Assembly (NCBI RefSeq): GCF_000219585.1
Contig: NC_015731.1
Location: 2,232,001-2,296,000, forward strand
DNA from: Nitrosomonas sp. Is79A3
Lineage (GTDB): Bacteria; Pseudomonadota; Gammaproteobacteria; Burkholderiales; Nitrosomonadaceae
DNA length: 64,000 bases
Direction: 5' to 3'
Below the pieces are notes generated by a model. It did not search any database. It was not told the origin of the DNA and saw only the letters and a list, made by a program, of their open reading frames with translations. The position numbers and the translations under genes are program-made. Below, piece by piece: positions 10,121 through 58,793 of the stretch. Within the stretch, counting starts at the first letter, position 1. Every line of letters starts with the position of its first letter.

Positions 10121-10238
10121 TTAAGGAATCTCTGAATAACTCACCTTTGTCATTCCGAACGTAGTGAGGAATCTTTGGCAATCAACAGTATAGGTTTCTC
10201 GCTATGCTCGAAATGACAGTTATTCAGAGGTTCCTTAA
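10121..10238. repeat. MITE-like palindromic repeat, copy A (full length)
   Basis: The termini TTAAGGAATCTCTGAATAAC (10121-10140) and GTTATTCAGAGGTTCCTTAA (10219-10238) are inverted repeats with 19 of 20 matching positions. Inside are two modules seen in the other copies: CATTCCGAACGTAGTGAGGA and TTTCTCGCTATGCTCGAAAT. It has no ORF. Related copies are at 44578, about 57790 and 58681. It fills much of the 388-base gap before argH. Confidence 0.85.
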
Positions 10239-10370
10239 ATTTACTGGCGGCCGCTGCTATCATGATTGTTGATCATTGTTCTTATGATTTAATAATTACA
10301 AACTTGGCAGATAACAGTCGCAATGCAAAAATATTGCAGTACCGCAAAATGAACGGCTGTGTGCATTTAT

Positions 10371-32930: not shown

Positions 32931-34316
32931 CTACTTTCCTACCATTTTCTCTGGAATAACCCAGGATTCAAATTGCTCTGAAGTGACATACCCGGTTGCA
33001 ATCGCAGCCGCTTTGAGCGTGATGCCTTCGCGATGCGCCTTTTTTGCAATCTCGGCGGCTTTGTCGTAACCGATATGCGGATTGAGCGCGGTTACCAGCA
33101 TGAGTGAGTGATGCATCAGCCTATCGATACGCTCAATATTGGCCTCGATGCCGGCGGCGCAGTGCTCGTTGAAACTGACCATGGCATCGGCGAGCAGCCG
33201 CACGCTTTGCAGGAAATTATGAATAATCAGCGGCTTCATCACATTCAATTCGAAATTCCCCAGCGCCCCGCCCATATTGATGGCGACATCATTGCCCATG
33301 ACCTGACAGCACACCATCGTCATGGCTTCCGATTGCGTCGGATTGACTTTGCCCGGCATGATCGAACTACCCGGTTCGTTTTCGGGGATGCGTAATTCAC
33401 CGATGCCGCAACGTGGCCCCGATGCCAACCAGCGAATATCGTTAGCAATTTTCATCAGTGACGCCGCCAGAGTTTTCAACGCGCCGTGCGCATGCACCAG
33501 AGCATCGTTACTCGCCAGCGCCTCGAATTTATTTGGCGCGGTGACAAACGGCAAACTGGTCAAACGCGATAATTCGGCGGCGACGCGCACGGCGAATTCC
33601 GGGTGTGCGTTCAGCCCGGTGCCGACCGCCGTGCCACCCAGCGCCAGTTCGCACACATGCGCCATCGCGGCTTCAACATGGCGCAGGCCATGATCCAGTT
33701 GCGCCACGTAGCCGGAAAATTCCTGTCCCAGCGTCAACGGCGTGGCATCCTGTAAATGCGTACGGCCGATTTTGACAATGCTGTCGAACGCCTGCGATTT
33801 ACCCGCCAACGTGTCACGCAATTGCTGAATCGCCGGAATCAGCCGTTGCTGCAATTCCTGCACCGCAGCAACATGCATCGCAGTGGGAAACACATCATTC
33901 GATGATTGACCCTTGTTGACCTCGTCGTTGGGATGCACGATCCGGCTGGCGCCGCGCCCGCCGCCGAGAATTTCTGACGCCCGGTTCGCCAGCACCTCGT
34001 TCACGTTCATGTTGGTTTGCGTACCGGAACCGGTTTGCCATACCACCAACGGGAATTGATCGTCGAAATGACCGGCGATCACCTCATCGGCGGCTTCAAT
34101 GATCGCCGCAGTGCTGGCCGCATTGAGCAACCCCAAATCGTGATTGACCTTGGCGGCTGCGCGTTTGACCTTGGCCAGCGCATGAATCAACGCAACCGGC
34201 ATACGCTCGCTTGAAATCTTGAAATTCTGCAACGAGCGCTGCGTTTGCGCGCCCCACAATGCTTCGGCGGGCACTTCAACCACGCCCATAGTGTCGCGTT
34301 CTTCACGGGTTTGCAT
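32931..34316 (-). CDS. fumC: FumC, class II fumarate hydratase
   Basis: FumC hydrates fumarate to malate in the TCA cycle without an iron-sulfur cluster. The 461-residue protein is full length (E. coli 467) with [10 protein letters not shown], the general-acid region [12 protein letters not shown]-like [13 protein letters not shown], and the loop [11 protein letters not shown]. Its first 33 codons and about 35 bases upstream are duplicated at 35047-35178, beyond the toxin-antitoxin pair, so the original promoter may have been separated from the gene. Confidence 0.96.
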
Positions 34317-34398
34317 GGGTAGCTACCTCACTAAATGGAATGAATTGGAGGAATTAGTTGACCGGGATTGAGATTTTGTTTAGCACCAAACACGCCCT

Positions 34399-34972: not shown

Positions 34973-35046
34973 ACTTATTATTATAAGCCTAAAATAAGTG
35001 TTTTAACAAAAATTATAAGAATTCAGGTCTCTGTGAAGCTTTATTT

Positions 35047-35145
35047 CTTGAAATTCCGTAACGAGCGCTACGTTTGCGCGCCCCATAATGCTTCGGTGGG
35101 CACCTCGACCACGCCCATAGTGTCGCGTTCTTCACGGGTTTGCAT
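35047..35145 (-). pseudogene. fumC: duplicated fumC 5' fragment
   Basis: The first 33 codons of fumC are present again, offset by exactly 829 bases with no gap, starting at the ATG 35145. Codon 26 (CAG in fumC) is TAG here, so it is dead. The similarity continues into the upstream leader to about 35178. It is the far side of the duplication that brackets the toxin-antitoxin pair. Confidence 0.85.
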
Positions 35146-35213
35146 GGGTAGTTACCTCACTATGTGGATAAATTGGGGTACTGGTTTACTAAAAAGTCGC
35201 TGAATTATTCTAA

Positions 35214-41382: not shown

Positions 41383-42174
41383 TTAATTTTTTGACGATAT
41401 AACTCGTCCATTTAGAGCTTGGGGTGTTCTCGCATTATTAGAGTAGAACCCCTTAAGTTGATCAAGTTGCGCTGATGATATCGTGACAACTTCTGACAAA
41501 AGATACCACTGCACCCCTTCGCTACAAGGTGGCGTAGTCAACGAACCCGCTAATGAATAAAAATTCAAATCTTGATGATTAATAGGAGGAAGTATGGATA
41601 AAGGATCGACTTGGATACCTGAAGTTGAATTTTGCGCTCCTGCGGAGTGAGGAGTATTATCCAAGATAGTTTGGAATGTTGCATTGGCTTCCCCCACATT
41701 AACAGCAACAGCCAAAACTACAATTTTTCCATCTTCTCCAATATGAACAAAATGTAATTCAGCTGGGAATTTTTTATCGCCGATTACATGCTCACTTGGT
41801 TCATGAAAATGAAACTGAATTAATGGATAAGATTCTTCTCCGATTTTAAACTCACCCGCATAACCAGACGAAGTATTTACCTGTACCGCGTGACCGCTAT
41901 TGAAAAATGTTGGCTTATCGATGTCATACCATATTTCTAATTTATTGAGCGCTTTTGCATTATTTACTGGCGCTGCAGCAAAATCAATCGGAGATTGGTG
42001 CTTGCCTATACTGCATTCCGCATAAGGGTAATTTAGAGGCACTACTGTTTGAGATGTATCTTGAATCGCACCCCACGTTGATTGCTCGGCATGAGTCCAT
42101 TCCGGACTAGCAATAACGATATTAGGCATAAGAATAGACACCACACTTACTAAAGCAAATTTAATTATCTTCAT
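41383..42174 (-). CDS. periplasmic alpha-carbonic anhydrase, copy 1
   Basis: Alpha-class carbonic anhydrase interconverts CO2 and bicarbonate. The 263-residue protein has a signal peptide (about 1-22, cleavage near VIA|S), zinc ligands H122, H124 (QFHFHEPSEH) and H141 (ELHFVH), the stabilising disulfide Cys54 and Cys217, and SPID and SLTTPPCSEG family motifs. It should act in the periplasm, supplying bicarbonate to this autotroph-like organism. It is preceded by a small Ser-rich CX4C protein gene 39 bases upstream. A second copy is at 51802. Confidence 0.93.
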   Translation of the reverse strand: MKIIKFALVSVVSILMPNIVIASPEWTHAEQSTWGAIQDTSQTVVPLNYPYAECSIGKHQSPIDFAAAPVNNAKALNKLEIWYDIDKPTFFNSGHAVQVNTSSGYAGEFKIGEESYPLIQFHFHEPSEHVIGDKKFPAELHFVHIGEDGKIVVLAVAVNVGEANATFQTILDNTPHSAGAQNSTSGIQVDPLSILPPINHQDLNFYSLAGSLTTPPCSEGVQWYLLSEVVTISSAQLDQLKGFYSNNARTPQALNGRVISSKN

Positions 42175-42213
42175 TGATATACCTCTCTATGTTATTAAGT
42201 CTTAATACCAAGC

Positions 42214-42450
42214 TTAGCAAGTATTCTTTTGGCAATAATCAACCATTGGTGGTTTCTTATCCGTCTTAGAATCTTGAGTGGGTTGAGAACTTTCTTTTGT
42301 AGTTGAAGGATCAGATGTCGATGAACCAGATTGCGATGATTGGGTTTGCTGATTTGAATCAGAGGATGATTTGGATTTATCTCCTCCTGGTTCAGCAAAA
42401 CATGAAACGCTTAAACTCAATGCGGCAGCCAAAAATATTTTTATAAGCAT
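42214..42450 (-). CDS. small exported Ser-rich CX4C protein, copy 1
   Basis: A 78-residue protein with a signal peptide (MLIKIFLAAALSLSVSCFA), a low-complexity linker rich in Ser, Thr, Gln and Lys, and a conserved C-terminal MVDYCQKNTC ending in a CX4C pair. The paralogue at 52619 keeps the signal peptide and C-terminus but not the linker, so the C-terminal motif is probably the functional part. It is upstream of the carbonic anhydrase gene in both places. A role as partner, metal donor or anchor is a guess. Confidence 0.75.
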   Translation of the reverse strand: MLIKIFLAAALSLSVSCFAEPGGDKSKSSSDSNQQTQSSQSGSSTSDPSTTKESSQPTQDSKTDKKPPMVDYCQKNTC

Positions 42451-42510
42451 GATTTCCTCACTAATAAAGAAGGATTAGTCGAGCCCTTATGATTTAAACA
42501 GCGTCTAGCC

Positions 42511-42525
42511 TGTTCGGCACGAATT
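42511..42525 (-). promoter_or_regulatory. degenerate GTAA-type palindrome upstream of CA module copy 1
   Basis: TGTTCG-GCA-CGAAT resembles the smbP-type palindrome with one base missing from the centre. It ends 61 bases before the start at 42450. The surrounding 85 bases are also similar to the leader of the second module. Confidence 0.45.
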
Positions 42526-42602
42526 TTAGCGAAAAATAATAAAGATGATATACGAGCAAGCACGTATATCAGTTAAATTACCTCCGGCAAAGCCGGAAGC
42601 TA

Positions 42603-44577: not shown

Positions 44578-44652
44578 TTAAGGAACCTCTGAATAACCGT
44601 CATTTCGAGCAGAGCGAGAAATCTATACTGTTGATTGCCAAAGATTCCTTAA
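44578..44652. repeat. MITE-like repeat, copy B (internally deleted)
   Basis: TTAAGGAACCTCTGAATAAC at the left end equals the terminal repeat of copy A. The element runs through CGTCATTTCGAGCAGAGCGA to AAAGATTCCTTAA, which looks like a join between the internal and terminal ATTCCT, removing about 43 bases. Confidence 0.8.
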
Positions 44653-45738: not shown

Positions 45739-47124
45739 CTAGAACATGCGCCCCCACAATCGAGCCGTCCATTCTTTCAGCCTGAGCAGTAGCGGCCTAC
45801 GCTCCCATTCTTCGAGTTCGATCGCATTCGAATTCGCAATATCCCTAAAGTAGGCTGCCTGCATTTGCTGCGCAAAGTCACGCCCCAGAATGACCGCATT
45901 GATTTCATCATTGTCCAGCGCGCTGCGCCAATCCAGATTGCTGGATCCAACGCAGGACCAGACACTGTCTACAATCGCGGTTTTTACATGCAGTAGTGCA
46001 CCTTGCCGTTCGTAAATTTTAACGCCTCCCTTCAGCAATTCAGAATAGTGTGAACGTCCCGCATGAAATGCCACTACCGAATCGGAATAACTCGGTAGGA
46101 TCAGCCTGACATCTACGCCACGACCAGCAGCATCAAGCAGGGCATTGAGAAGCTGCGGATCAGGCACAAAATAGGCATTTGTGATATATACCTGTTTTTC
46201 CGCGTTGGTGATCGCGGCTATGAGCGTCAGATAGATCAGGCTGTAAGGATCATCCGGCGTACTGCCAATCGCACGAATTATTTCCTTACCTTGTGGTGCG
46301 ATAAGCGGAAAGTAGTTTCTTTGTGCCAGCGTCTTGCCATGCTGCTTGTTCCAGGTCTGCAGGAACAATTTTTGAAATTCGGCAACTACCGGCCCCTCGA
46401 TTTGAATGTCAGTATCGCGCCATCCGCGTGTTTGGTCGACCGGTTCTTCTTTCCTCCTGATGGAGGATCCGGTCGAATAAGCGTTGCTGATATTGATGCC
46501 GCCAAGAAATGCCGTATGTCCATCCACTACGAGCAGCTTGCGGTGATCACGATTATTGGGTGTCCATGACTTCTTTATTAATAATGGATTAATCGGATTG
46601 AATTCAAGTACCTGAATGCCGGCTTGTGCGAGACGATCGAAGAACGTTCTTGCTGTGCCTATTGTGCCGTAGCTGTCATAAATCAGGTTGACTTGGACGC
46701 CTTGTGCTTGCCGCTCGATCAAGAGATCCGCGAACTGTTGACCGACGTCATTATCTTCGATGGTGAAGGATTCCAAATTGATATGATCTTGGGCTTTACG
46801 GATAGCGGCGAACATAGCCTGGTACGTTGCTGGGCCGTCCTGCAGCAATATGACCTTATTGCCTACCACGAGTGGACTGCCGACGATTTCCTGTTCGAGC
46901 GCAATCTGTTTATCCAAGATATCGATGTCGCCGGACTTTTGCTTGAGTTTCTCCACGATGGCAGCACTTCTTTTTGCCGAAATCGAACCCCATGCGTCTT
47001 TGAAATGCGCTGCTTGTGCAATGTAACGCTCTGACAGGAACTGCGTATCCGGCAGCGTCGCGCAACCGGTCGCGATGAATAAGCAGTAGGTCGCTGCAGC
47101 AGCGAACTTAAATGCGATTATCAT
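45739..47124 (-). CDS. lipoprotein phospholipase D/cardiolipin synthase-like protein
   Basis: A 461-residue PLD-superfamily protein with two HKD motifs: HRKLLVVDGHTAFLGGIN and HVKTAIVDSVWSCVGSSNLD. The organisation is that of the ClsB/ClsC-type cardiolipin synthases, which condense phosphatidylglycerol. Unlike E. coli ClsA it begins with a lipoprotein signal (MIIAFKFAAAATYCLFIATGC, Cys21), so it is probably tethered to a membrane on the periplasmic side. ATG 47124 is chosen because of AAGGA upstream and the lipobox; longer frames start at 47160 and 47205. Confidence 0.82.
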   Translation of the reverse strand: MIIAFKFAAAATYCLFIATGCATLPDTQFLSERYIAQAAHFKDAWGSISAKRSAAIVEKLKQKSGDIDILDKQIALEQEIVGSPLVVGNKVILLQDGPATYQAMFAAIRKAQDHINLESFTIEDNDVGQQFADLLIERQAQGVQVNLIYDSYGTIGTARTFFDRLAQAGIQVLEFNPINPLLIKKSWTPNNRDHRKLLVVDGHTAFLGGINISNAYSTGSSIRRKEEPVDQTRGWRDTDIQIEGPVVAEFQKLFLQTWNKQHGKTLAQRNYFPLIAPQGKEIIRAIGSTPDDPYSLIYLTLIAAITNAEKQVYITNAYFVPDPQLLNALLDAAGRGVDVRLILPSYSDSVVAFHAGRSHYSELLKGGVKIYERQGALLHVKTAIVDSVWSCVGSSNLDWRSALDNDEINAVILGRDFAQQMQAAYFRDIANSNAIELEEWERRPLLLRLKEWTARLWGRMF

Positions 47125-47352
47125 CACATTATTCCTTATCTGAGCTATGCTGATTTTCATGGAATTGATAGTTTCATACAATGAAGAAATGAAAGTAGAG
47201 AACAAGGATAAAGCAATAAACTGACAGTGAAAGCGAGAAGATGAAGGCTATTGATTGCCAAATGAATATACTTGGGCAATGTGATGCAAATCTAGTTGCG
47301 GTTTAACACGATATTTTCTATATTTGACAGCACATACATCACAATGCGTCTA

Positions 47353-50706: not shown

Positions 50707-51033
50707 AGCTTATTTAATGAAGAGTGTTAAACGATCGGCAATATCCTGTGCTAACACAACGGCAACTTAAGATTTCAACCTTTTACTTCTTAAATATACC
50801 GTAAATAATTATATATTTAACCTTCCGTACGCGAGTTGTCTGTGCGATAAGCAACATAAACCAACCGCCGGCCAATTATCGGCTGCCGGTATTCATAGCC
50901 TAATCCTGTTATTTTTAATGATCTGGGGCCTGTTAGCAGAAAATAGATTGCCTACTTTTGTTCGCATTGAATTTATACATTCAGTACGTTAGTAAACTTT
51001 GATAAAGTGTACGTTTTCACTTCGAGAAAAGTG
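50707..51033. other. 327-base intergenic gap
   Basis: A+T-rich region between the divergent PAS-GGDEF-EAL gene and the ABC-ATPase remnant. No ORF, clear promoter or repeat seen. Confidence 0.6.
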
Positions 51034-51390
51034 ATGACACTACTTGAAATACGCAATGTAACCAAGCGATTAGGAAAGTTCACCGCCGTAGATAATTTTA
51101 GTATCGAGATCAAAGCCGGTGAATTCTTCACGCTGCTGGGTCCATCCGGTTGTGGCAAGACGACGTTATTACGCATGATCGCCGGTTTTGATGCGCCCGA
51201 CGGCGGGCAAATTTTGCTCGATGGTGAAGATATTGTCGGCTTTCCTCCGGAGAAACGTCCCTTTCATACCGTTTTCCAGAGCTATGCGCCATTTCCGCAT
51301 ATGACAGTAACCGACAATATCGGATCCTCGCTGAAAATGTCGGGCAAAACGCGCGAAGAAATTAAAATCCGCGTTGCCGAAACACTGGCA
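51034..51390 (+). pseudogene. truncated PotA/PotG-type ABC transporter ATPase
   Basis: The start MTLLEIRNVTKRLGKFTAVD and Walker A GPSGCGKTTLL are intact, and the Q-loop FQSYAPFPHMTV is present. The frame leaves the family after RVAETLA (51390), before the signature LSGGQ, Walker B and H-loop, so it cannot hydrolyse ATP. The frame continues as unrelated sequence to 51513. An IS5-type remnant follows directly. Spermidine/putrescine uptake ATPases are the closest group. Confidence 0.8.
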
Positions 51391-51463
51391 GACAAAACAA
51401 ATAGGTGTCCAGAATCAAGAATATCTAATCGTACAGAGCTCTTGAAAGAAGGTATTCTGGCAG

Positions 51464-51589
51464 CTGATTGGCAGCAGCGGTTTCAACGGCTATCAACAAA
51501 TCGTTGTTATTGATTAAGGTGTACTGCTTATAGCCAAAAACTGACTTGCCGCCTTTCTTAACCAGCGTACACCTGCAGTTGCTAATATC
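51464..51589 (-). pseudogene. IS5-family transposase remnant
   Basis: Minus-strand reading gives KKGGKSVFGYKQYTLINNND and then LLIAVETAAAN, the conserved KKGGKxxFGYKxH....D..G.......T.AN block of IS5-type transposases. It lacks the rest of the protein and is bounded by other sequence on both sides. Confidence 0.7.
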
Positions 51590-51801: not shown

Positions 51802-52587
51802 TTAGTGATTTATCCTTTGTGAAACAGAGCGGCCGTTCAGTTCTTGCTTATTCCTGGCATTATCGGAATAAATGCTTTTCAATTGTGCAAGCTGCTCTTG
51901 CGAAATGGTGATCGGTTCTGACAAAACCAGCCAGTTAACGCCTTCACTACACGGTGGCGTTGTGAGAGAGCCTGCCAGAGAATAATGATCCATTTGATTT
52001 TTAGGCAATAATGATCCCGGATTCAGCCGGATACCGGATTGATCGTTTTGTTCGCCACTGGTAGCCGGCACATTGTCCAAAATAGTCTGGAATACCGGAT
52101 TGCTCTCGCCTTCTTCTATCAAGACGCTGACAACAGCAATTTTTCCATCGTCTTTAATATGTACATAATGCAATTCCGCAGGAAACTTTTTTTCTCCAAT
52201 GACATGTTCACTGGGTTCATGGAAATGAAATTGTATTAATGGATAAGATTCTTCACCAATAACCGCGTGACCTTGGTAATCATCCGATGTATTGACCTGC
52301 GCCGCATGGCCGGTATTATAAAAAACCGGTTTATCGGTAGGATATCTAAACTTTAATCTATCCAGCCGTTCTTCGTGGCTTAATGCTGTCAAATCTATGG
52401 GGGATTGATGTTTACCAATGCCACAAGTGGCATATGGATACATCAACGGCACTTCTGACTGGGTATCATCTTTAATCGCACCCCATTGCGATTGTTCATC
52501 ATAACCCCAGTGCGGACTGGAAATCGCAACGGTTGCGTAGCCTATAAAAATTGTAGAAGCCAGGTTTCTCAATATTTTTGTACTCAT
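51802..52587 (-). CDS. periplasmic alpha-carbonic anhydrase, copy 2
   Basis: A 261-residue alpha-carbonic anhydrase with signal peptide (cleavage near AIS|S), zinc ligands H121, H123 and H140, disulfide Cys55 and the Cys of TTPPCSEG. It is a clear paralogue of the protein at 41383 and shares long identical stretches such as IGEESYPLIQFHFHEPSEHV. It follows the small CX4C protein gene at 52619-52840 by 31 bases. Having two periplasmic carbonic anhydrases suggests dosage or separate control. Confidence 0.93.
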   Translation of the reverse strand: MSTKILRNLASTIFIGYATVAISSPHWGYDEQSQWGAIKDDTQSEVPLMYPYATCGIGKHQSPIDLTALSHEERLDRLKFRYPTDKPVFYNTGHAAQVNTSDDYQGHAVIGEESYPLIQFHFHEPSEHVIGEKKFPAELHYVHIKDDGKIAVVSVLIEEGESNPVFQTILDNVPATSGEQNDQSGIRLNPGSLLPKNQMDHYSLAGSLTTPPCSEGVNWLVLSEPITISQEQLAQLKSIYSDNARNKQELNGRSVSQRINH

Positions 52588-52618
52588 TGGTTAACTCCGA
52601 TTTCAGATAGTCATTGGA

Positions 52619-52840
52619 TTAGCAGGTACTCTTTTTGCAAAATTCAACCATGGCTGGTTTCTTGGTCTGCTTCGAATCCTGAGGGGATTGAGAATTTTCT
52701 TTGGTGGTTGACGAATCTGATGGTGACGTCTGCTTTTGTTGATCCGAGTCAGAGGATAATTTGGATTTATCTCCCGCTGATTCAGCAAAACATGAAGTAC
52801 TAAAAGTCAATGCAGCAACCAGAAATATTTTTATAAGCAT
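52619..52840 (-). CDS. small exported Ser-rich CX4C protein, copy 2
   Basis: A 73-residue paralogue of the protein at 42214: signal peptide MLIKIFLVAALTFSTSCFA, a shorter Ser/Gln/Lys linker, and the C-terminal MVEFCKKSTC. The linker has diverged and shortened while both ends are kept. About 85 bases upstream of the ATG are also similar to copy 1. Confidence 0.75.
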   Translation of the reverse strand: MLIKIFLVAALTFSTSCFAESAGDKSKLSSDSDQQKQTSPSDSSTTKENSQSPQDSKQTKKPAMVEFCKKSTC

Positions 52841-52900
52841 AAATTCCTCATTATTAAAAAAGGATTAGTCGAGCTCTTATCATTCAAACAGCGTCCAACC

Positions 52901-52914
52901 TGTTCAGTAGAAAT
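52901..52914 (-). promoter_or_regulatory. degenerate GTAA-type palindrome upstream of CA module copy 2
   Basis: CTGTTCAGTAGAAATT corresponds position by position to the element at 42511 and lies 61 bases before the start at 52840. Taken alone it would not be called. Confidence 0.3.
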
Positions 52915-52983
52915 TGTAGCGAAAAATAATTAAGATGAAATACGTGTGAACACCTATAGCAATTAGCGCGCAAACTTGTTTAG

Positions 52984-53240
52984 CTAAATAATTTTTTCAA
53001 GATATTCGATCGTTAACCCGGGAACTTTGGGCACACCGATACCCAGATGCAATGGATAAGTTTCAATCCTGCCGGTGCGCGAGTACCCTCTGCGTTGATA
53101 AAATGCGATTAATTCCGGGCGCTGTGATATCACAAACATGACAAACTTGTGCACGCGCAGAGTGCTGAATGCAATACTTTCTGTCTGCTCAAGCACATAC
53201 TTGCCGAGCCTTTTTCTTTGCAAATTGAGGTCAGAACACA
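52984..53240 (-). pseudogene. truncated GNAT acetyltransferase copy
   Basis: The last 84 codons match the C-terminal half of the intact GNAT gene at 60987-61505 in order: LGKYVLEQTESIAFSTLRVH, ISQRPELIAFYQRRGYSRTG and YPLHLGIGVPKVPGLTIEYL. The N-terminal half is missing and sequence upstream of 53240 is unrelated. The acetyl-CoA loop QGKGLG is here QRKRLG, so it is not a functional enzyme. Confidence 0.85.
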
Positions 53241-53411
53241 GACTGGATCCCATATTATAGATTCGACCATTTTAAGTAATGAAGTCTCAAACTAAGAATA
53301 TAGCCGATGGCATAACGATAATTTTTATTTCGTGACCTTGTGGGATGTCTATTGACTTGCATTGGATCCGCGACAAAGTACCTTCCCCCCAGTATTGCCG
53401 TAGCTTTGAGT

Positions 53412-56400
53412 TTATTTCCGTGGAAGCGCGCAATCAATTACACAAATCCGAATACGATGCATTTCTTCTGATGTCAGTGTCTGTTTCAAACGATTCTCCA
53501 ATTCAGGAGCAGTAGTGGGTTTCTTACCGCCATCGACAGGAGAGGGCATCCCTTCCCCATCAAACCAAAACACCAAATAAATTCCATACCCATCCGTACC
53601 CGGATCGCGAACATATTTGGCAATCAATTGCTCACGAATCGCACGCCAAAGATCAGCATGACTGTCTTTCTTGATTTCGATGGGAATGTTGAATCCATTG
53701 GCGCCGTCAAATGAAACCCTGATGTCAGCACGCTTGTCGTCCGCGTAACTGCCCTCCCTTTCGGCATTAATACTGAGCTTCCCAAGCCGCTCCCGCAGAT
53801 CGGACAGCAAAGCATCGCGGCAATCGTTCTCAGGTTTGGGTTTTTCCAGTTTTTTATTATTTGCGTCGTAGCTCCAATATTGCCGGTAATCGTTGGTACT
53901 GCCATCACGAATTTTCCGCGCGATACCGCGCAAATGATCAAAAGTCAAAGCAGCCAGATCGGCAGCACTAGCTGGTTGAAGGTTAGCCAGCGTGCGACCA
54001 ATTTCCGTGATGCTTAAGCGTTTGAACGACACCTTGCGTCGAATAATACGCTGAGAATGCAAAGCGTTGCGCAAATGACTCTGCCAAGACTTAAGCTCAG
54101 GTAGATTCTGTAAACGTTCAAGTTCACAGGCAGCTCCTTCCGTAGGGTAATTACTTAGTTTATTGATAAAGGAGCGTACCAAGTCGGCTGCGTTCATGGA
54201 TAAGCTAACCGTATAAGCCCCAATTACACGTTCGGGAGAACAATCCGGTGCCAGCAATTCGATCAGACGGCCAAGCGCAGTTTCGGAAATTAACACCCAA
54301 TCGGGCAAATGGCGTTCGACGTGGTCGTGATAGAAAAAATTTACCAAGCATCCCTTCCGCACAGCGTTCGCTCCAATATGCTGAAACAATCGGGTTTCAT
54401 AAATATCCGGGGCAATCAGCAAACCACAACTTAACCAGTACACTCGCTGCGTAGCATTCATACTTTTTAGTTCAAGTTTTCGAGCGACCAATGTTGTAAA
54501 TACTTCCCGGTCAAGGTAACGCAATGCACCTTTTAGCAGCAGAACAAGTGTGTTCGGTAACTGAATTCTTCGGGCGCGTAACGAAAATTCTTCCAGAAGT
54601 TTCGGTAGCACCGCGCGTGCAACCTCACTATACGCATCGTCACACACCAAGGAACTCAGCCCGGAAACATGCTCTTTCCCCGCACGCAACATGGCCAGGA
54701 GGTAAACTAGCAGTACTTCCGCCACCAACGCAGGACGTTGCCGTACAAGTGCCTTAAACCATTCCGAATCATTGTAATTGCCATAAGTAAGCTGGAACGC
54801 TATTAAGCGTGACAACACAGCATCTTCAAGCCGTAACGCATTGATTGGATCATTCTGAAATAATTCATCCATACCAACCAAGCAAACCAAACGAATATGA
54901 TCCCATTCTGACCTAATTTCCAAATCAACAATTTCACTCACACTCGGCAAATCGTTACGATTAAGCGCTTGGCGAAAACCTGAATAAGCCGCTTCGATCA
55001 GTTCCTCATCGTCATTCAGAAAATTCACAAGACGTTCGCGAGATGTTTCCCCCCAGGTCTCGTCACTTAATCCCTCATATGCCAAAGCAAGTTCATCCAA
55101 TATCTTTGGATGCGCACTGCCATCCCGAATAACTGCAATATGTTGACGAAAAGATTTAATCCAGCCTTTTTTCTGCTCTTCCTGCCCGATTCTGCGTTGC
55201 CGATCTTCGAGGGCGAATTTATGTTGCCAATCTCCGATGGGACAAGATATAACTTGTTCAAACTGGACTTGAAAATTGGGATGTGCCGCAATCCATATTT
55301 CAAGAAACTCCAACATCGAGAGAGTCAATTCCTGCTGTTCTCCTCGCTGCTTTAGCTGCCGAATAGCTTGATCAAAATAAAATTCCGCTAATTCGCGATA
55401 TTGTTCCGTTGCCGCTTTCTCCAGATACCACATTTCAATTCCGTTTGGAGGCCGTGACCGGTACAGGTGATTTTCACAGCGATACATGCAAGCCCGAGTA
55501 TTCTCATGATTGGCGCATCGTGCAGCACCCAGTTCAATCATGGCTTTATAACGTTCAGGCCGATCAGCAAACCATGCTGCAATAAATTCAGCGCTTTCTC
55601 GATCAAGCCTAGGGCCGCCATGCTCGTTAAGACCAATGCCTAACCAGTCATAGAGCTGTTCATTGGCAATTGTATCGCCGAACTCCTTTAATCCGCGCAC
55701 CAGCAGATTTCCCGCCATACGGTTTTGATGATGCTCTTTCAGAATATGATCGATATCCGGTTTTACTTGTATGAATCTATCAAGCACAGCCAACAAGCTT
55801 TCTTTGGAAGATTTTTCCGGAAGATAGTGAATCCAAAAAACACGATAACTGCCAATCAAACTTTCAATTCTTGGAACATGCAAGTAATCAAATATTCTGT
55901 CAGGCGGAATAAGCTGCGGATAAAGCTCTTTTAGAATAATACCGAGTATTTCATCATCACAGTCTTCGACAATACCAGCGCGAATATCCACCGCGAATTT
56001 CAGCAACGTTACACAATCATCCAGAGCATTACGAACCCACGTTTTTATCGCACTTGTTCTAACGAATCGGTGGTAGCTGCTATCGCGCGCAATAACTTCG
56101 AGTAAATCATTAAGATTTGATAGTGGTTCGCCATAACGGATCGCTTCCAGCGCGCAATTTAATATCTCCTGATCCGTTTGCTCGCGAGAAGGCGAAATCA
56201 ATATTTCACGCAATAGCGGCTCAATATCCTTCGTGCCCAATGCGCCAAAAGGTGAGGAAGAAAAATCTTCCGAACGAAACCACGGATTGCGTTGCGCTTC
56301 ATTTTTTAAAGCGGCAAAAACAAATTTTTTATCCGCCAATGGGAAATGCCGCACATCGCCATATAGCACCACACCCAATGGGTCGCGTTCGATTAAGAGG

Positions 56401-57488
56401 CGGCGCGACTCATTAAGACAATGAACCGAAAGCCATGCGGCAAATCCGCGCAGATCGGTGACTACGCCGCCATCCGCACCTGTCATCAATGCAAGCACGC
56501 GGGCAAACGGCAAACCATCATCCTTGATACGTAAAGCAAGATGGCGCGCCCCGAGAAATTCAGCAATGCTGCGATGCACCGGGACGCGCAATTCTTCACC
56601 ATCACCCTGAAACAAATTGGTTTTCAGTGCAGCAAACAGTGGAAGATTAGACTCTATCAATTCCTTCCAGGAAGGATGCTGATCATCTACCCATTCTTCA
56701 TCGAGCGAAAAACCAGCCACACCCGATAACAACTGAATGGCACACAAATATCCTACAGCATCCAGCAGTATATCTTCGGAAAATGGCTGTTCCCGTTTTG
56801 CTTGACGGTGCTCGCGATTTTCTTCTTTTATGAGCTTTTTGCAAGCCATTTCATAAACCTGCATACGGCTTTGCGGCCATTCGTTTCCGCCTACTGCATT
56901 GACCAGCAAATTCAATGTTTGCGGATTGCGAAGTAGTTCATCCACCCGATGGATCCGCGCCTGGCGCATGAATTTAGCCGGATCGGAAACGGCGGGTTTA
57001 TGCCGGAGAATTTCGGCGATGTCATTATCATTCAAGGGATCAAGATGCAACGCGATGATTTCGCTATCCGGCGATACCCACTTCAAGGCTTCGCTGTCAC
57101 TCGCGCCCAGCCAATCCGCTTCGCGGCATGACAGACGGAATCGTGGACGGCCGAGTCTTGCCAGATGTTTACGAATGTCATCAAGTAGTATTCTGCTATC
57201 ACCACCACCGACACGCATCTCGTCCAATCCGTCAATGAACAGGGTTTTGCCTTGGTACTCCACTCCAGGTTCGAAAGTGGCAAAGTCTCGCGCGCTAATA
57301 TACTTGTCGCCGGATTCTTCCGCTTCTTGCTTAAAGGATGTAGTTTTACCCAATCCCGGATCGCCCAGTAACACGTATGCAGCTTGATCACGAAAGGATT
57401 CCAAAGAAAAACTTCTTCGCTCTTGCACTTTATCCGATCTGCGCGTGCAGGTACGCTGCACATGGAAAGGCTCTTCTTCCTTATTCAA
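53412..57488 (-). CDS. NACHT/STAND-type NTPase with C-terminal PD-(D/E)XK nuclease motif
   Basis: A 1358-residue cytoplasmic protein. The NTPase module is at the N-terminus: Walker A GDPGLGKTT (42-50), Walker B FIDGLDE (84-90, the NACHT signature) and a sensor region SCREADWL (about 119-126). A long helical middle (about 250-1200) looks like degenerate repeats and may be the sensor. The C-terminal region has D1255 (RADIRV), E1271 and K1273 (IEIKK) and Q1287, the PD-(D/E)XK nuclease set. STAND NTPase plus nuclease is the logic of antiviral Avs-like proteins, but here the nuclease is C-terminal. The start is TTG 57488 or a later GTG. Phage defence is the likeliest role, not shown. Confidence 0.8.
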   Translation of the reverse strand: MNKEEEPFHVQRTCTRRSDKVQERRSFSLESFRDQAAYVLLGDPGLGKTTSFKQEAEESGDKYISARDFATFEPGVEYQGKTLFIDGLDEMRVGGGDSRILLDDIRKHLARLGRPRFRLSCREADWLGASDSEALKWVSPDSEIIALHLDPLNDNDIAEILRHKPAVSDPAKFMRQARIHRVDELLRNPQTLNLLVNAVGGNEWPQSRMQVYEMACKKLIKEENREHRQAKREQPFSEDILLDAVGYLCAIQLLSGVAGFSLDEEWVDDQHPSWKELIESNLPLFAALKTNLFQGDGEELRVPVHRSIAEFLGARHLALRIKDDGLPFARVLALMTGADGGVVTDLRGFAAWLSVHCLNESRRLLIERDPLGVVLYGDVRHFPLADKKFVFAALKNEAQRNPWFRSEDFSSSPFGALGTKDIEPLLREILISPSREQTDQEILNCALEAIRYGEPLSNLNDLLEVIARDSSYHRFVRTSAIKTWVRNALDDCVTLLKFAVDIRAGIVEDCDDEILGIILKELYPQLIPPDRIFDYLHVPRIESLIGSYRVFWIHYLPEKSSKESLLAVLDRFIQVKPDIDHILKEHHQNRMAGNLLVRGLKEFGDTIANEQLYDWLGIGLNEHGGPRLDRESAEFIAAWFADRPERYKAMIELGAARCANHENTRACMYRCENHLYRSRPPNGIEMWYLEKAATEQYRELAEFYFDQAIRQLKQRGEQQELTLSMLEFLEIWIAAHPNFQVQFEQVISCPIGDWQHKFALEDRQRRIGQEEQKKGWIKSFRQHIAVIRDGSAHPKILDELALAYEGLSDETWGETSRERLVNFLNDDEELIEAAYSGFRQALNRNDLPSVSEIVDLEIRSEWDHIRLVCLVGMDELFQNDPINALRLEDAVLSRLIAFQLTYGNYNDSEWFKALVRQRPALVAEVLLVYLLAMLRAGKEHVSGLSSLVCDDAYSEVARAVLPKLLEEFSLRARRIQLPNTLVLLLKGALRYLDREVFTTLVARKLELKSMNATQRVYWLSCGLLIAPDIYETRLFQHIGANAVRKGCLVNFFYHDHVERHLPDWVLISETALGRLIELLAPDCSPERVIGAYTVSLSMNAADLVRSFINKLSNYPTEGAACELERLQNLPELKSWQSHLRNALHSQRIIRRKVSFKRLSITEIGRTLANLQPASAADLAALTFDHLRGIARKIRDGSTNDYRQYWSYDANNKKLEKPKPENDCRDALLSDLRERLGKLSINAEREGSYADDKRADIRVSFDGANGFNIPIEIKKDSHADLWRAIREQLIAKYVRDPGTDGYGIYLVFWFDGEGMPSPVDGGKKPTTAPELENRLKQTLTSEEMHRIRICVIDCALPRK

Positions 57489-57689
57489 GGCCTATGCTCT
57501 ACGAAAGAAAGAGACTTCAGAAATCGAAGCATATTTCAGGGTTGTACTGTGCGATTGACATTAAAATGTTATTGTTTGTATTAATCTGTACCAAGTTTAA
57601 ATGCATTCGCGATAAATTCGACATCGAGAGAATCCATTATCGCAAGTCTTTGGGGTCACACAAATCCAAATCTTTGGGATCAGGTACAG

Positions 57690-57897
57690 AATCAAGAATC
57701 CAATACCGGCAACGCACCCAACAAGATCACAAATCAAAAATCAAACTTAATTCATCGGCTATATTCTCAGTTCTGGACCTGGCTCCATGCTTCAATAACT
57801 GTCTTTTCGAGCATAGCGAGAAATCTATGCTATTGTTCCCCAAAGATTCCTCACTTCATTCGGAATGACAAGGTGGTTTATTCAGAGACTCCTCAAC
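57690..57897 (+). repeat. composite repeat E + MITE copy C
   Basis: A 100-bp segment containing AATCCAATACCGGCAACGCAC and TTAATTCATCGG is followed by MITE copy C (ending near 57897). The same pair in the same orientation is at 58576-58793. The two flank the exported-protein gene at 57958-58548. Confidence 0.75.
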
Positions 57898-57957
57898 CAG
57901 GATGGTGAGATAATGCCGCCTGGTGAGCATGCCCATTAATGTTTCTACGAGAGGTTT

Positions 57958-58548
57958 ATGATGCGCTTTATTTCTTCGTCGAATTGGCATAAAAGTTCTT
58001 TAGTACTCCGATTTTTGTTGTTAGGGGTAGCGACGACAATCAGTTTCTCAATTTCGGCCAGTCAGACTACCGGCACGGAGAAACACCCATTGGAAACAAT
58101 TGAGATCGCAGGTATTTCGTTAAATACACCGCCGGAAACGATAACGAAAATTCTGCAAGCGCAAGATTACATCCCAGTCAATGAAACCCTCTATACCAAG
58201 CAGGAACCGGCACAAAACGGGCGCAGCACCGTCTACCGCGTAGAAATCGAGGATACGGCAACATCCCGCCAGTTGAGTTATTTCAGAAGTTTAACCGGCG
58301 GACGAAATAAAAGTCCTGCGGCACGCGATGCGGCTATTCCTGCAGCCGAAATAACCACAGCGCAACAACTTTATGATTTCGTTTGTGTCGTTCCGCAAGC
58401 ACTACAAACGGAAAGAGCCTGCATGCCACAGACACCGGCAAATATTATTTTCGGCCATGGGCAATTGATTGCCATCGATGCGCATTACTCGGCATTACTG
58501 AAGGCATCGGACTCAAGTACATCAATGATTATCAAGTACATTGAGTGA
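57958..58548 (+). CDS. exported protein of unknown function
   Basis: A 196-residue protein with an N-terminal hydrophobic signal (about 15-34, VLRFLLLGVATTISFSIS to SAS|Q). The mature part has a helix-rich block TPPETITKILQAQDYIPVNE followed by TLYTKQEPAQNGRSTVYRVEIED and two Cys (VCVVP and RACMP) that could pair. No family recognised. It is flanked by ~210-bp direct repeats on both sides. GAGAGG precedes tandem ATG codons. Confidence 0.65.
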   Translation: MMRFISSSNWHKSSLVLRFLLLGVATTISFSISASQTTGTEKHPLETIEIAGISLNTPPETITKILQAQDYIPVNETLYTKQEPAQNGRSTVYRVEIEDTATSRQLSYFRSLTGGRNKSPAARDAAIPAAEITTAQQLYDFVCVVPQALQTERACMPQTPANIIFGHGQLIAIDAHYSALLKASDSSTSMIIKYIE

Positions 58549-58575
58549 TTTTTTACAATATGCCTACCAAGCACC

Positions 58576-58793
58576 GAATCTCGAATCCAATACTGGCAAC
58601 GCACACACCACCAAGTCACAAAACAGAAATCAGACTTAATCCGTCGGATATATTCTCGATTCGCGTATCTGACCCCGTGCTTCCCTGAATAACCGATATT
58701 TGTCATTCCAAACGTAGTGAGGAATCTTTGAGAATCAATTGCATAGATTTCTCGCTCTGCTCGAAATGACGGTTATCCAGAGTCTCCTTAAAA
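58576..58793 (+). repeat. composite repeat E + MITE copy D
   Basis: AATCCAATACTGGCAACGCAC opens the copy of repeat E, and MITE copy D follows (58681-58793) with CATTCCAAACGTAGTGAGGA and TTTCTCGCTCTGCTCGAAAT modules. It is the partner of 57690-57897. Confidence 0.75.

What the first reader, a model, noticed from the sequence alone, without database searches (positions are those of the whole stretch)
53412..57488. Lone giant NACHT-like NTPase with a C-terminal PD-(D/E)XK nuclease motif: possible unnamed defence protein
Seen: Walker A at 42-50, FIDGLDE at 84-90, and D1255, E1271-x-K1273, Q1287 near the C-terminus of one 1358-residue chain. Known: STAND/NACHT NTPases of the Avs and bNACHT groups sense phage proteins and trigger an effector. 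Here the effector-like domain is C-terminal and no partner gene is present. It sits in a repeat- and IS-rich island between two copies of a GNAT gene. Inference: a stand-alone sensor-nuclease of a clade I cannot match to a named system.
Basis: partly seen in the sequence, partly recalled or inferred. Interest (0 to 1): 0.8.

Follow-up and report, generated by a model that had tools for sequence, protein, structure and literature searches.

The report
EruA-like bacterial immune sensor-nuclease
The gene encodes a large bacterial relative of animal NLR immune receptors with a predicted DNA-cutting domain at its tail, very close to a family already named as an anti-virus protein (EruA), and it seems to descend from a two-gene version whose second gene was lost here.

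Summary
In detail: one intact 1358-aa ORF (53412-57488, minus) with every residue named. Models give an NLR-type NACHT fold (NLRP3 Z 19.8), a helical middle and a C-terminal PD-(D/E)XK fold; the catalytic set is invariant in 32 of 32 aligned C-terminal domains (2 of 34 homologues left out). 'Unnamed' is wrong: NCBIfam NF058535, 'NACHT domain-containing antiphage protein EruA', covers it end to end (E 3e-294), at 979.8 bits against a cut-off of 1000; a 59%-identical relative scores 1008. 'Lone' is true here but looks derived: four close relatives carry a 418-aa AAA_14/DUF4143 protein (PADLOC candidate PDC-S01) directly upstream, a fifth keeps only its last 30 residues, and the window shows at most a short, weak trace. 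The gene remains under purifying selection (dN/dS 0.18-0.24), so it probably works alone. Likely mechanism: a phage-derived trigger engages the helical arm, the ATP-bound NACHT parts assemble, and the C-terminal nucleases cut DNA; trigger, assembly and cutting are inferred. The window gene is a new member of a known kind; the two-gene variant in its relatives is the most novel part.

The parts
53412..57488 (-). EruA-like CDS, 1358 aa, TTG start
   Evidence: dN/dS 0.18-0.24 among three Nitrosomonas copies
56499..57401 (-). NACHT (STAND) NTPase part, residues 30-330: Walker A 42-50, Walker B-like FIDGLDE 84-90, SCR-x3-W 120-126, HRSIAE motif with H305 and E310 (34/34 rows)
   Evidence: PDB profile match to NLRC4 E 1.6e-4; model matches NLRP3 NACHT Z 19.8 over 357 residues
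54039..56471 (-). all-helical middle, residues 340-1150, presumed sensor arm
   Evidence: secondary structure of the model, mean pLDDT 76.6, pTM 0.63, with a poor stretch at about 678-758; sensor role is inference
53415..54038 (-). C-terminal PD-(D/E)XK nuclease domain, residues 1151-1358: E1220, E1245, D1255, E1271-x-K1273, Q1287
   Evidence: model pLDDT 86.8, pTM 0.84; VIA-align rows 1-14 all restriction endonucleases or Can2, Z 8.6 to 7.2; Foldseek alone weak, best E 3.2e-3 PspGI
57489..57533 (-). possible trace of the 3' end of a lost upstream partner gene (AAA_14/DUF4143); the eruA TTG lies where relatives have a TTGA start/stop overlap
   Evidence: weak: reaches or beats 2000 shuffles in 3 and 5 cases against L011 and L010, 224 against L009, 1957 against L008, 30-nt comparison; clear 30-aa remnant only in relative L010, E 3.5e-9
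52982..58279 (.). block shared at 94% with a Nitrosomonas MAG (L087 = L002 contig): truncated GNAT, eruA-like gene and upstream stretch
52984..53253 (-). truncated GNAT copy, 89 aa
60987..61505 (-). full-length GNAT gene, 172 aa
59459..60316 (+). IS1595-family transposase
   Evidence: PF12762 E 9.1e-12

Best explanation
An EruA-like, NLR-type anti-phage protein in a single chain. The N-terminal NACHT NTPase (about residues 30-330) is the switch, the helical middle (about 340-1150) the presumed sensor, and the C-terminal PD-(D/E)XK domain (1151-1358) the effector, so the order is the reverse of Avs and bNACHT proteins, whose effector is N-terminal. Proposed steps: a phage protein, or a host protein disturbed by infection, binds the helical arm; ADP/ATP exchange and NACHT assembly follow; the C-terminal nucleases are brought together and cut DNA, which ends the infection, with or without the cell. 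Shown here: intact gene, folds (predicted), catalytic residues conserved, purifying selection. Inferred: trigger, assembly, DNA as substrate, outcome. In this lineage it works without the AAA_14/DUF4143 partner that its relatives carry upstream.
For: NF058535 EruA E 3.1e-294, residues 12-1353 on profile 1-1317 of 1318. NACHT: NLRP3 Z 19.8, NLRC4 and Avs3 among the first Foldseek rows. Nuclease. Patchy distribution: intact in 3 of 85 genomes of the genus, E <= 1e-20 in 12 of 300 of the order, E <= 1e-50 in 9 of 369 of the class and 25 of 398 of the phylum; relatives on 29 plasmid records and 13 distinct viral contigs. Neighbours of 18 relatives match 74 PADLOC models against 13 for control stretches of the same genomes. 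dN/dS Q-L002 0.235, Q-L047 0.188, L002-L047 0.181.
Against: It misses the curated EruA cut-off by 20 bits. No experiment here, and I found no paper on this EruA, so the antiphage claim rests on NCBI's family name. The window's own surroundings show no convincing defence gene (18 ORFs tested). Foldseek alone gives no nuclease match under E 1e-3, and VIA-align Z of 8-9 is middling by the tool's own note. The enrichment counts models, several per gene, not genes.
Confidence: 0.65

Rival explanations
1. It is the remaining half of a two-gene system. The AAA_14/DUF4143 protein upstream (with its own D..E-V-K motif) is needed for sensing or cutting, and the window gene is a non-functional or altered leftover.
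For: Directly upstream, same strand, in G187, G071, G008 and G702, also in the fragmentary loci of G891 and G457 and in viral contig L052. A TTGA stop/start overlap is seen in L008, L009, L011 and in the remnant of L010; the pattern was not found in L032. In the order and phylum samples the 5 places at 66% identity or more all lie beside eruA, and the 18 at 56% or less lie in genomes without an eruA hit.
Against: Most EruA relatives, including all the highest-scoring ones, show no such gene in the loci read. The Nitrosomonas copies stay intact and under purifying selection after the loss, which predates the split of the window and L002, since both have the same upstream sequence. The identity tiers are relative to a linked query, and linked partners in G457 and L052 are only 52-59% identical. 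The tree label test is not significant: 4 changes, shuffled mean 4.8, 75 of 500 as low.
Confidence: 0.15
2. A NACHT-nuclease that acts on something other than phage: plasmid or mobile-element control, or regulation of cell death by host cues.
For: Trigger unknown; relatives sit on plasmids and in viral contigs, so competition between elements is possible.
Against: NCBI's name for the family is antiphage; defence-like neighbours of relatives.
Confidence: 0.13
3. A housekeeping or degenerate NTPase whose PD-(D/E)XK-like residues are coincidental.
For: Foldseek alone is weak for the C-terminal model; no Pfam nuclease match in any useful number of 32 members.
Against: Six catalytic-type residues invariant in 32 of 32, fold matches dominated by PD-(D/E)XK enzymes, absence from most genomes of the genus.
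Confidence: 0.07

Closest known systems
NCBIfam NF058535, NACHT domain-containing antiphage protein EruA
   Same: End-to-end match, residues 12-1353 on positions 1-1317 of 1318, E 3.1e-294; same length and, in members over the cut-off, the same C-terminal catalytic set.
   Different: 979.8 bits against a cut-off of 1000; the window's clade contains relatives with an upstream AAA_14/DUF4143 gene.
NCBIfam NF058534, HyoA
   Same: Partial match, E 3e-45, same general order.
   Different: 154.4 bits against a cut-off of 1200.
bNACHT clade 6 (bNACHT25, bNACHT32)
   Same: NACHT plus PD-(D/E)XK nuclease in one chain; nuclease needed for defence and DNA degraded on infection (passages of PMC12169576).
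   Different: There the nuclease is N-terminal and the C-terminus is the sensor; here the nuclease is C-terminal.
Avs (AVAST) STAND proteins
   Same: STAND NTPase; Avs3 is the first Foldseek row for the N-terminal model, E 1.2e-5.
   Different: Avs2 is described with a C-terminal sensor and N-terminal effector (passages of PMC12724215); PADLOC gives no match at E <= 1 for the window protein.
PADLOC candidate PDC-S01 (AAA_14-DUF4143)
   Same: The upstream gene of four close relatives matches PDLC04791 at E 4.6e-161 to 1.1e-170.
   Different: Absent from the window and not found in its genome.

Membership tests
EruA (NF058535, equivalog) | Whole-protein score at or above the curated cut-off of 1000 bits | tested here: not met
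   979.8 bits, 979.5; clade relatives 1067.6, 1017.7, 1008, 997.1, 980.5
EruA (NF058535, equivalog) | Full-length coverage of the model | tested here: met
   1-1317 of 1318
EruA (NF058535, equivalog) | Anti-phage activity | not testable with these tools
   Needs a phage challenge
HyoA (NF058534, equivalog) | Whole-protein score at or above 1200 bits | tested here: not met
   154.4 bits
NACHT/STAND NTPases | P-loop, acidic Walker B, winged-helix part with conserved His; NACHT fold | tested here: met
   Motifs 33/34 or better, H305 34/34; NLRP3 Z 19.8; Pfam NACHT in 19 of 33 members at E <= 0.1, not in the window protein itself. That the His is the winged-helix His is recalled
PD-(D/E)XK nucleases | Fold plus D, E-x-K (and helix E) | tested here: met
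   activity not tested
bNACHT / Avs architecture | N-terminal effector, C-terminal sensor | tested here: not met
   Walker A begins at residue 42, leaving no room for an N-terminal effector; nuclease at 1151-1358
PDC-S01 two-gene arrangement | AAA_14/DUF4143 gene directly upstream | tested here: not met
   No tblastn match in the window and none in the genome at E <= 1e-3; the same query rings in relatives

The most novel reading that the evidence does not exclude
A branch of the EruA family is a coupled two-gene immune system: an AAA_14/DUF4143 ATPase-nuclease followed by a NACHT-nuclease with overlapping stop and start. The Nitrosomonas lineage dropped the first gene and kept a working one-gene form, a natural experiment on how a two-nuclease system turns into a stand-alone receptor.
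Probability: 0.4. Interest if true: 0.6.

Novelty: new member of a known kind. Interest (0 to 1): 0.42.

Why it matters
It adds an EruA-like receptor in an ammonia oxidiser, shows an NLR-like bacterial protein with the effector at the other end from Avs and the bNACHT proteins described in the passages read, and gives matched natural variants (with partner, remnant, without) that make the role of the AAA_14/DUF4143 gene directly testable.

Tried and rejected
Whole-protein searches in Pfam (two weak rows), PADLOC 2023 (none at E <= 1) and PDB by phmmer (P-loop only) did not name it. Pfam scan of 32 C-terminal domains gave only scattered chance-like rows, at most 2 members each, and the PDB profile search with them gave nothing below E 0.095; the nuclease rests on motif conservation and the model. 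Tox-WTIP (E 0.083 whole protein, 0.0078 on the domain) was judged chance: 2 of 32 members. Foldseek for the C-terminal model: no match under 1e-3.

Origin of the name EruA: searches found no paper on an antiphage EruA or HyoA in the held library; PMC12839154 (listing and abstract start only) uses EruA for an unrelated E. coli regulator. DefensePredictor (passages) does not use either name. One search found no listed paper with DUF4143 among its 15 rows.

Pseudogene after partner loss: disfavoured by an intact ORF and dN/dS 0.18-0.24. GNAT-flanked composite element: not established; the truncated GNAT is shared with L087 next to the gene, but homology to G1081 covers only 53422-57492. No empty-site comparison was made. 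The partner trace in the window is weak and is not used as proof.

The PADLOC neighbourhood test used MAFFT alignments A6 and A7 only as containers for unrelated proteins; one control protein (L111:15317-19801) was dropped to stay under the residue limit; 18 of the 27 fetched relative neighbourhoods that hold a relative were used, those with a control stretch; only 25 of 74 models are listed for the test set, and gene-level counts were not obtained.
Full report
OBSERVATION. The ORF is at the stated place, 1358 aa, TTG start, minus strand, once in a 3.78-Mb genome. The genome belongs to the genus of a MAG titled Nitrosomonas sp. (L002 contig).

WHAT IT IS. NCBIfam names it at once: NF058535 antiphage_EruA, E 3.1e-294, 979.8 bits, cut-off 1000, full length; HyoA is a distant second at 154.4 bits. 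By NCBI's own rule it is therefore not called EruA, but the cut-off runs through its clade: relatives score 1067.6 (L008), 1017.7 (L009), 1008 (L010), 997.1 (L032), 980.5 (L011) and 979.5 (window). I call it EruA-like.

ANATOMY. The N-terminal 1159 residues model at pLDDT 76.6 and pTM 0.63; the first 430 match NLRP3 NACHT at Z 19.8, rmsd 3.4, 357 residues, and Foldseek ranks Avs3 and NLRC4 first. The rest is helical, with a poor stretch at about 678-758. The last 208 residues model at pLDDT 86.8 and pTM 0.84. VIA-align rows 1-14 are all restriction endonucleases (PaqCI 8.6, BamHI 8.3, BstYI 7.4) or Can2 (8.3); Hachiman HamA (6.6) and McrBC (6.5) follow. Unrelated rows also appear (Z 5.8 at rank 49), Foldseek alone is weak, and Z near 8 is middling; the invariant E1220, E1245, D1255, E1271, K1273, Q1287 carry the nuclease claim together with the fold.

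DISTRIBUTION. With the EruA model: 12 of 300 genomes of the order at E <= 1e-20 (7 over cut-off), 9 of 369 of the class and 25 of 398 of the phylum at E <= 1e-50 (2 and 9 over cut-off) (the samples overlap). In the genus, 5 of 85 genomes match, 3 of them with the full gene (window, G1061 92%, G1081 81%), one with an internal deletion (G1058) and one with a short broken fragment (G015). Relatives occur on 29 of 72,556 plasmid records, all under 60% identity, in 1 of 50,697 phage records, and on 13 distinct viral contigs; I did not test which of these are prophage. Homology to G1081 stops at the gene's ends (53422-57492), so the gene has moved between sites.

A LOST PARTNER. In the close relatives G187, G071, G008 and G702 a 417-419 aa ORF lies directly upstream on the same strand; the two tested (L073, L085) are AAA_14 plus DUF4143, and all four match PADLOC candidate PDC-S01. 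The same gene is found upstream in fragmentary loci of G891 and G457 and in viral contig L052. Five linked partners aligned keep D..E-V-K, as do the 12 unlinked ones aligned; 8 of 25 names gave no ORF by that script's filter. Stop and start overlap as TTGA in L008, L009 and L011 (pattern not found in L032), and in L010, which keeps only the last 30 residues of the partner at 80% identity, E 3.5e-9. In the window a similar trace of 30-45 nt is weak: good against L010 and L011, not against L008. In the tree of 43, all 5 partner-bearing rows fall in one clade of 12 (support 100); by hand, 792/962598 or about 8e-4 by chance, but relatedness is ignored there, and the program's own label test is not significant (4 changes, shuffled mean 4.8, 75 of 500 as low). 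In the 8-row clade of the window, 4 have the gene, 1 the remnant, and the 3 Nitrosomonas rows neither. In the order and phylum samples, places at 66-100% identity to the G008 partner (5) all lie beside eruA; places at 43-56% (18) lie in genomes without an eruA hit. The window's genome has no such gene at E <= 1e-3.

STILL FUNCTIONAL. dN/dS is 0.235 (window-L002), 0.188 (window-L047) and 0.181 (L002-L047), and below 0.26 in NTPase, middle and nuclease parts. Window and L002 share the upstream sequence that replaces the partner, so selection continued after the loss at least on that branch.

NEIGHBOURHOODS. For 18 relatives, 143 neighbouring ORFs match 74 PADLOC models at E <= 1e-15 (DrmD, SIR2, HerA, type II methyltransferase, PD-T7-4, NERD-UvrD, and PDC-S01 from 3 of the partner genes), against 13 models for 140 ORFs of control stretches in the same genomes. 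Models overlap on genes, so this is a sign, not a count of systems. The window itself has carbonic anhydrase, GNAT, IS1595 and EamA genes nearby and no convincing defence gene among 18 ORFs tested.

MECHANISM. See Best explanation. Literature seen: passages of PMC12169576 state that bNACHT proteins have a C-terminal sensor and N-terminal effector and that the N-terminal PD-(D/E)XK domain of bNACHT25/32 is needed for defence and degrades DNA; passages of PMC12724215 describe the same order for Avs2. The present protein reverses the order. No paper on EruA was found in the held library.

VERDICT. A real, well-conserved NACHT-nuclease; already a named kind; a member just under the curated line; with an apparently ancestral partner gene lost here.

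Noticed in passing
L088:7595-8476 (G1058): A Nitrosomonas relative carries a 293-aa in-frame deletion form that joins the first ~125 residues (Walker A and B kept) directly to the nuclease domain from ~1162 on.
   Followed up: partly
window 57686-57896, 58573-58792, 10121-10239, 44578-44649: A short repeat family in both orientations (83-96% identical), possibly a MITE, lies just upstream of the eruA-like gene and elsewhere in the window.
   Followed up: partly
window 41721-42575 and 52137-52965: Two stretches 70% identical over 867 bp; the second overlaps a carbonic anhydrase gene (51802-52587), the first an ORF at 41383-42174.
   Followed up: no
window 34209-34348 and 35038-35176: Direct repeat, 89% identical over 140 bp.
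   Followed up: no
window 51007-51513: ABC-transporter ATPase ORF that ends after 168 aa, apparently truncated.
   Followed up: no
window 45739-47205: 488-aa ORF with a DrmC-like match (PADLOC, E 9e-17) over residues 332-448 only; probably a phospholipase-D-type protein rather than DISARM.
   Followed up: no
L003:584-3689: A short contig in a MAG labelled Cytophagales carries an 89%-identical copy whose open frame breaks off; possibly a binning error.
   Followed up: no
L049 (G015:C1:18322-18525): A short remnant of the N-terminus with two stop codons in another Nitrosomonas.
   Followed up: no
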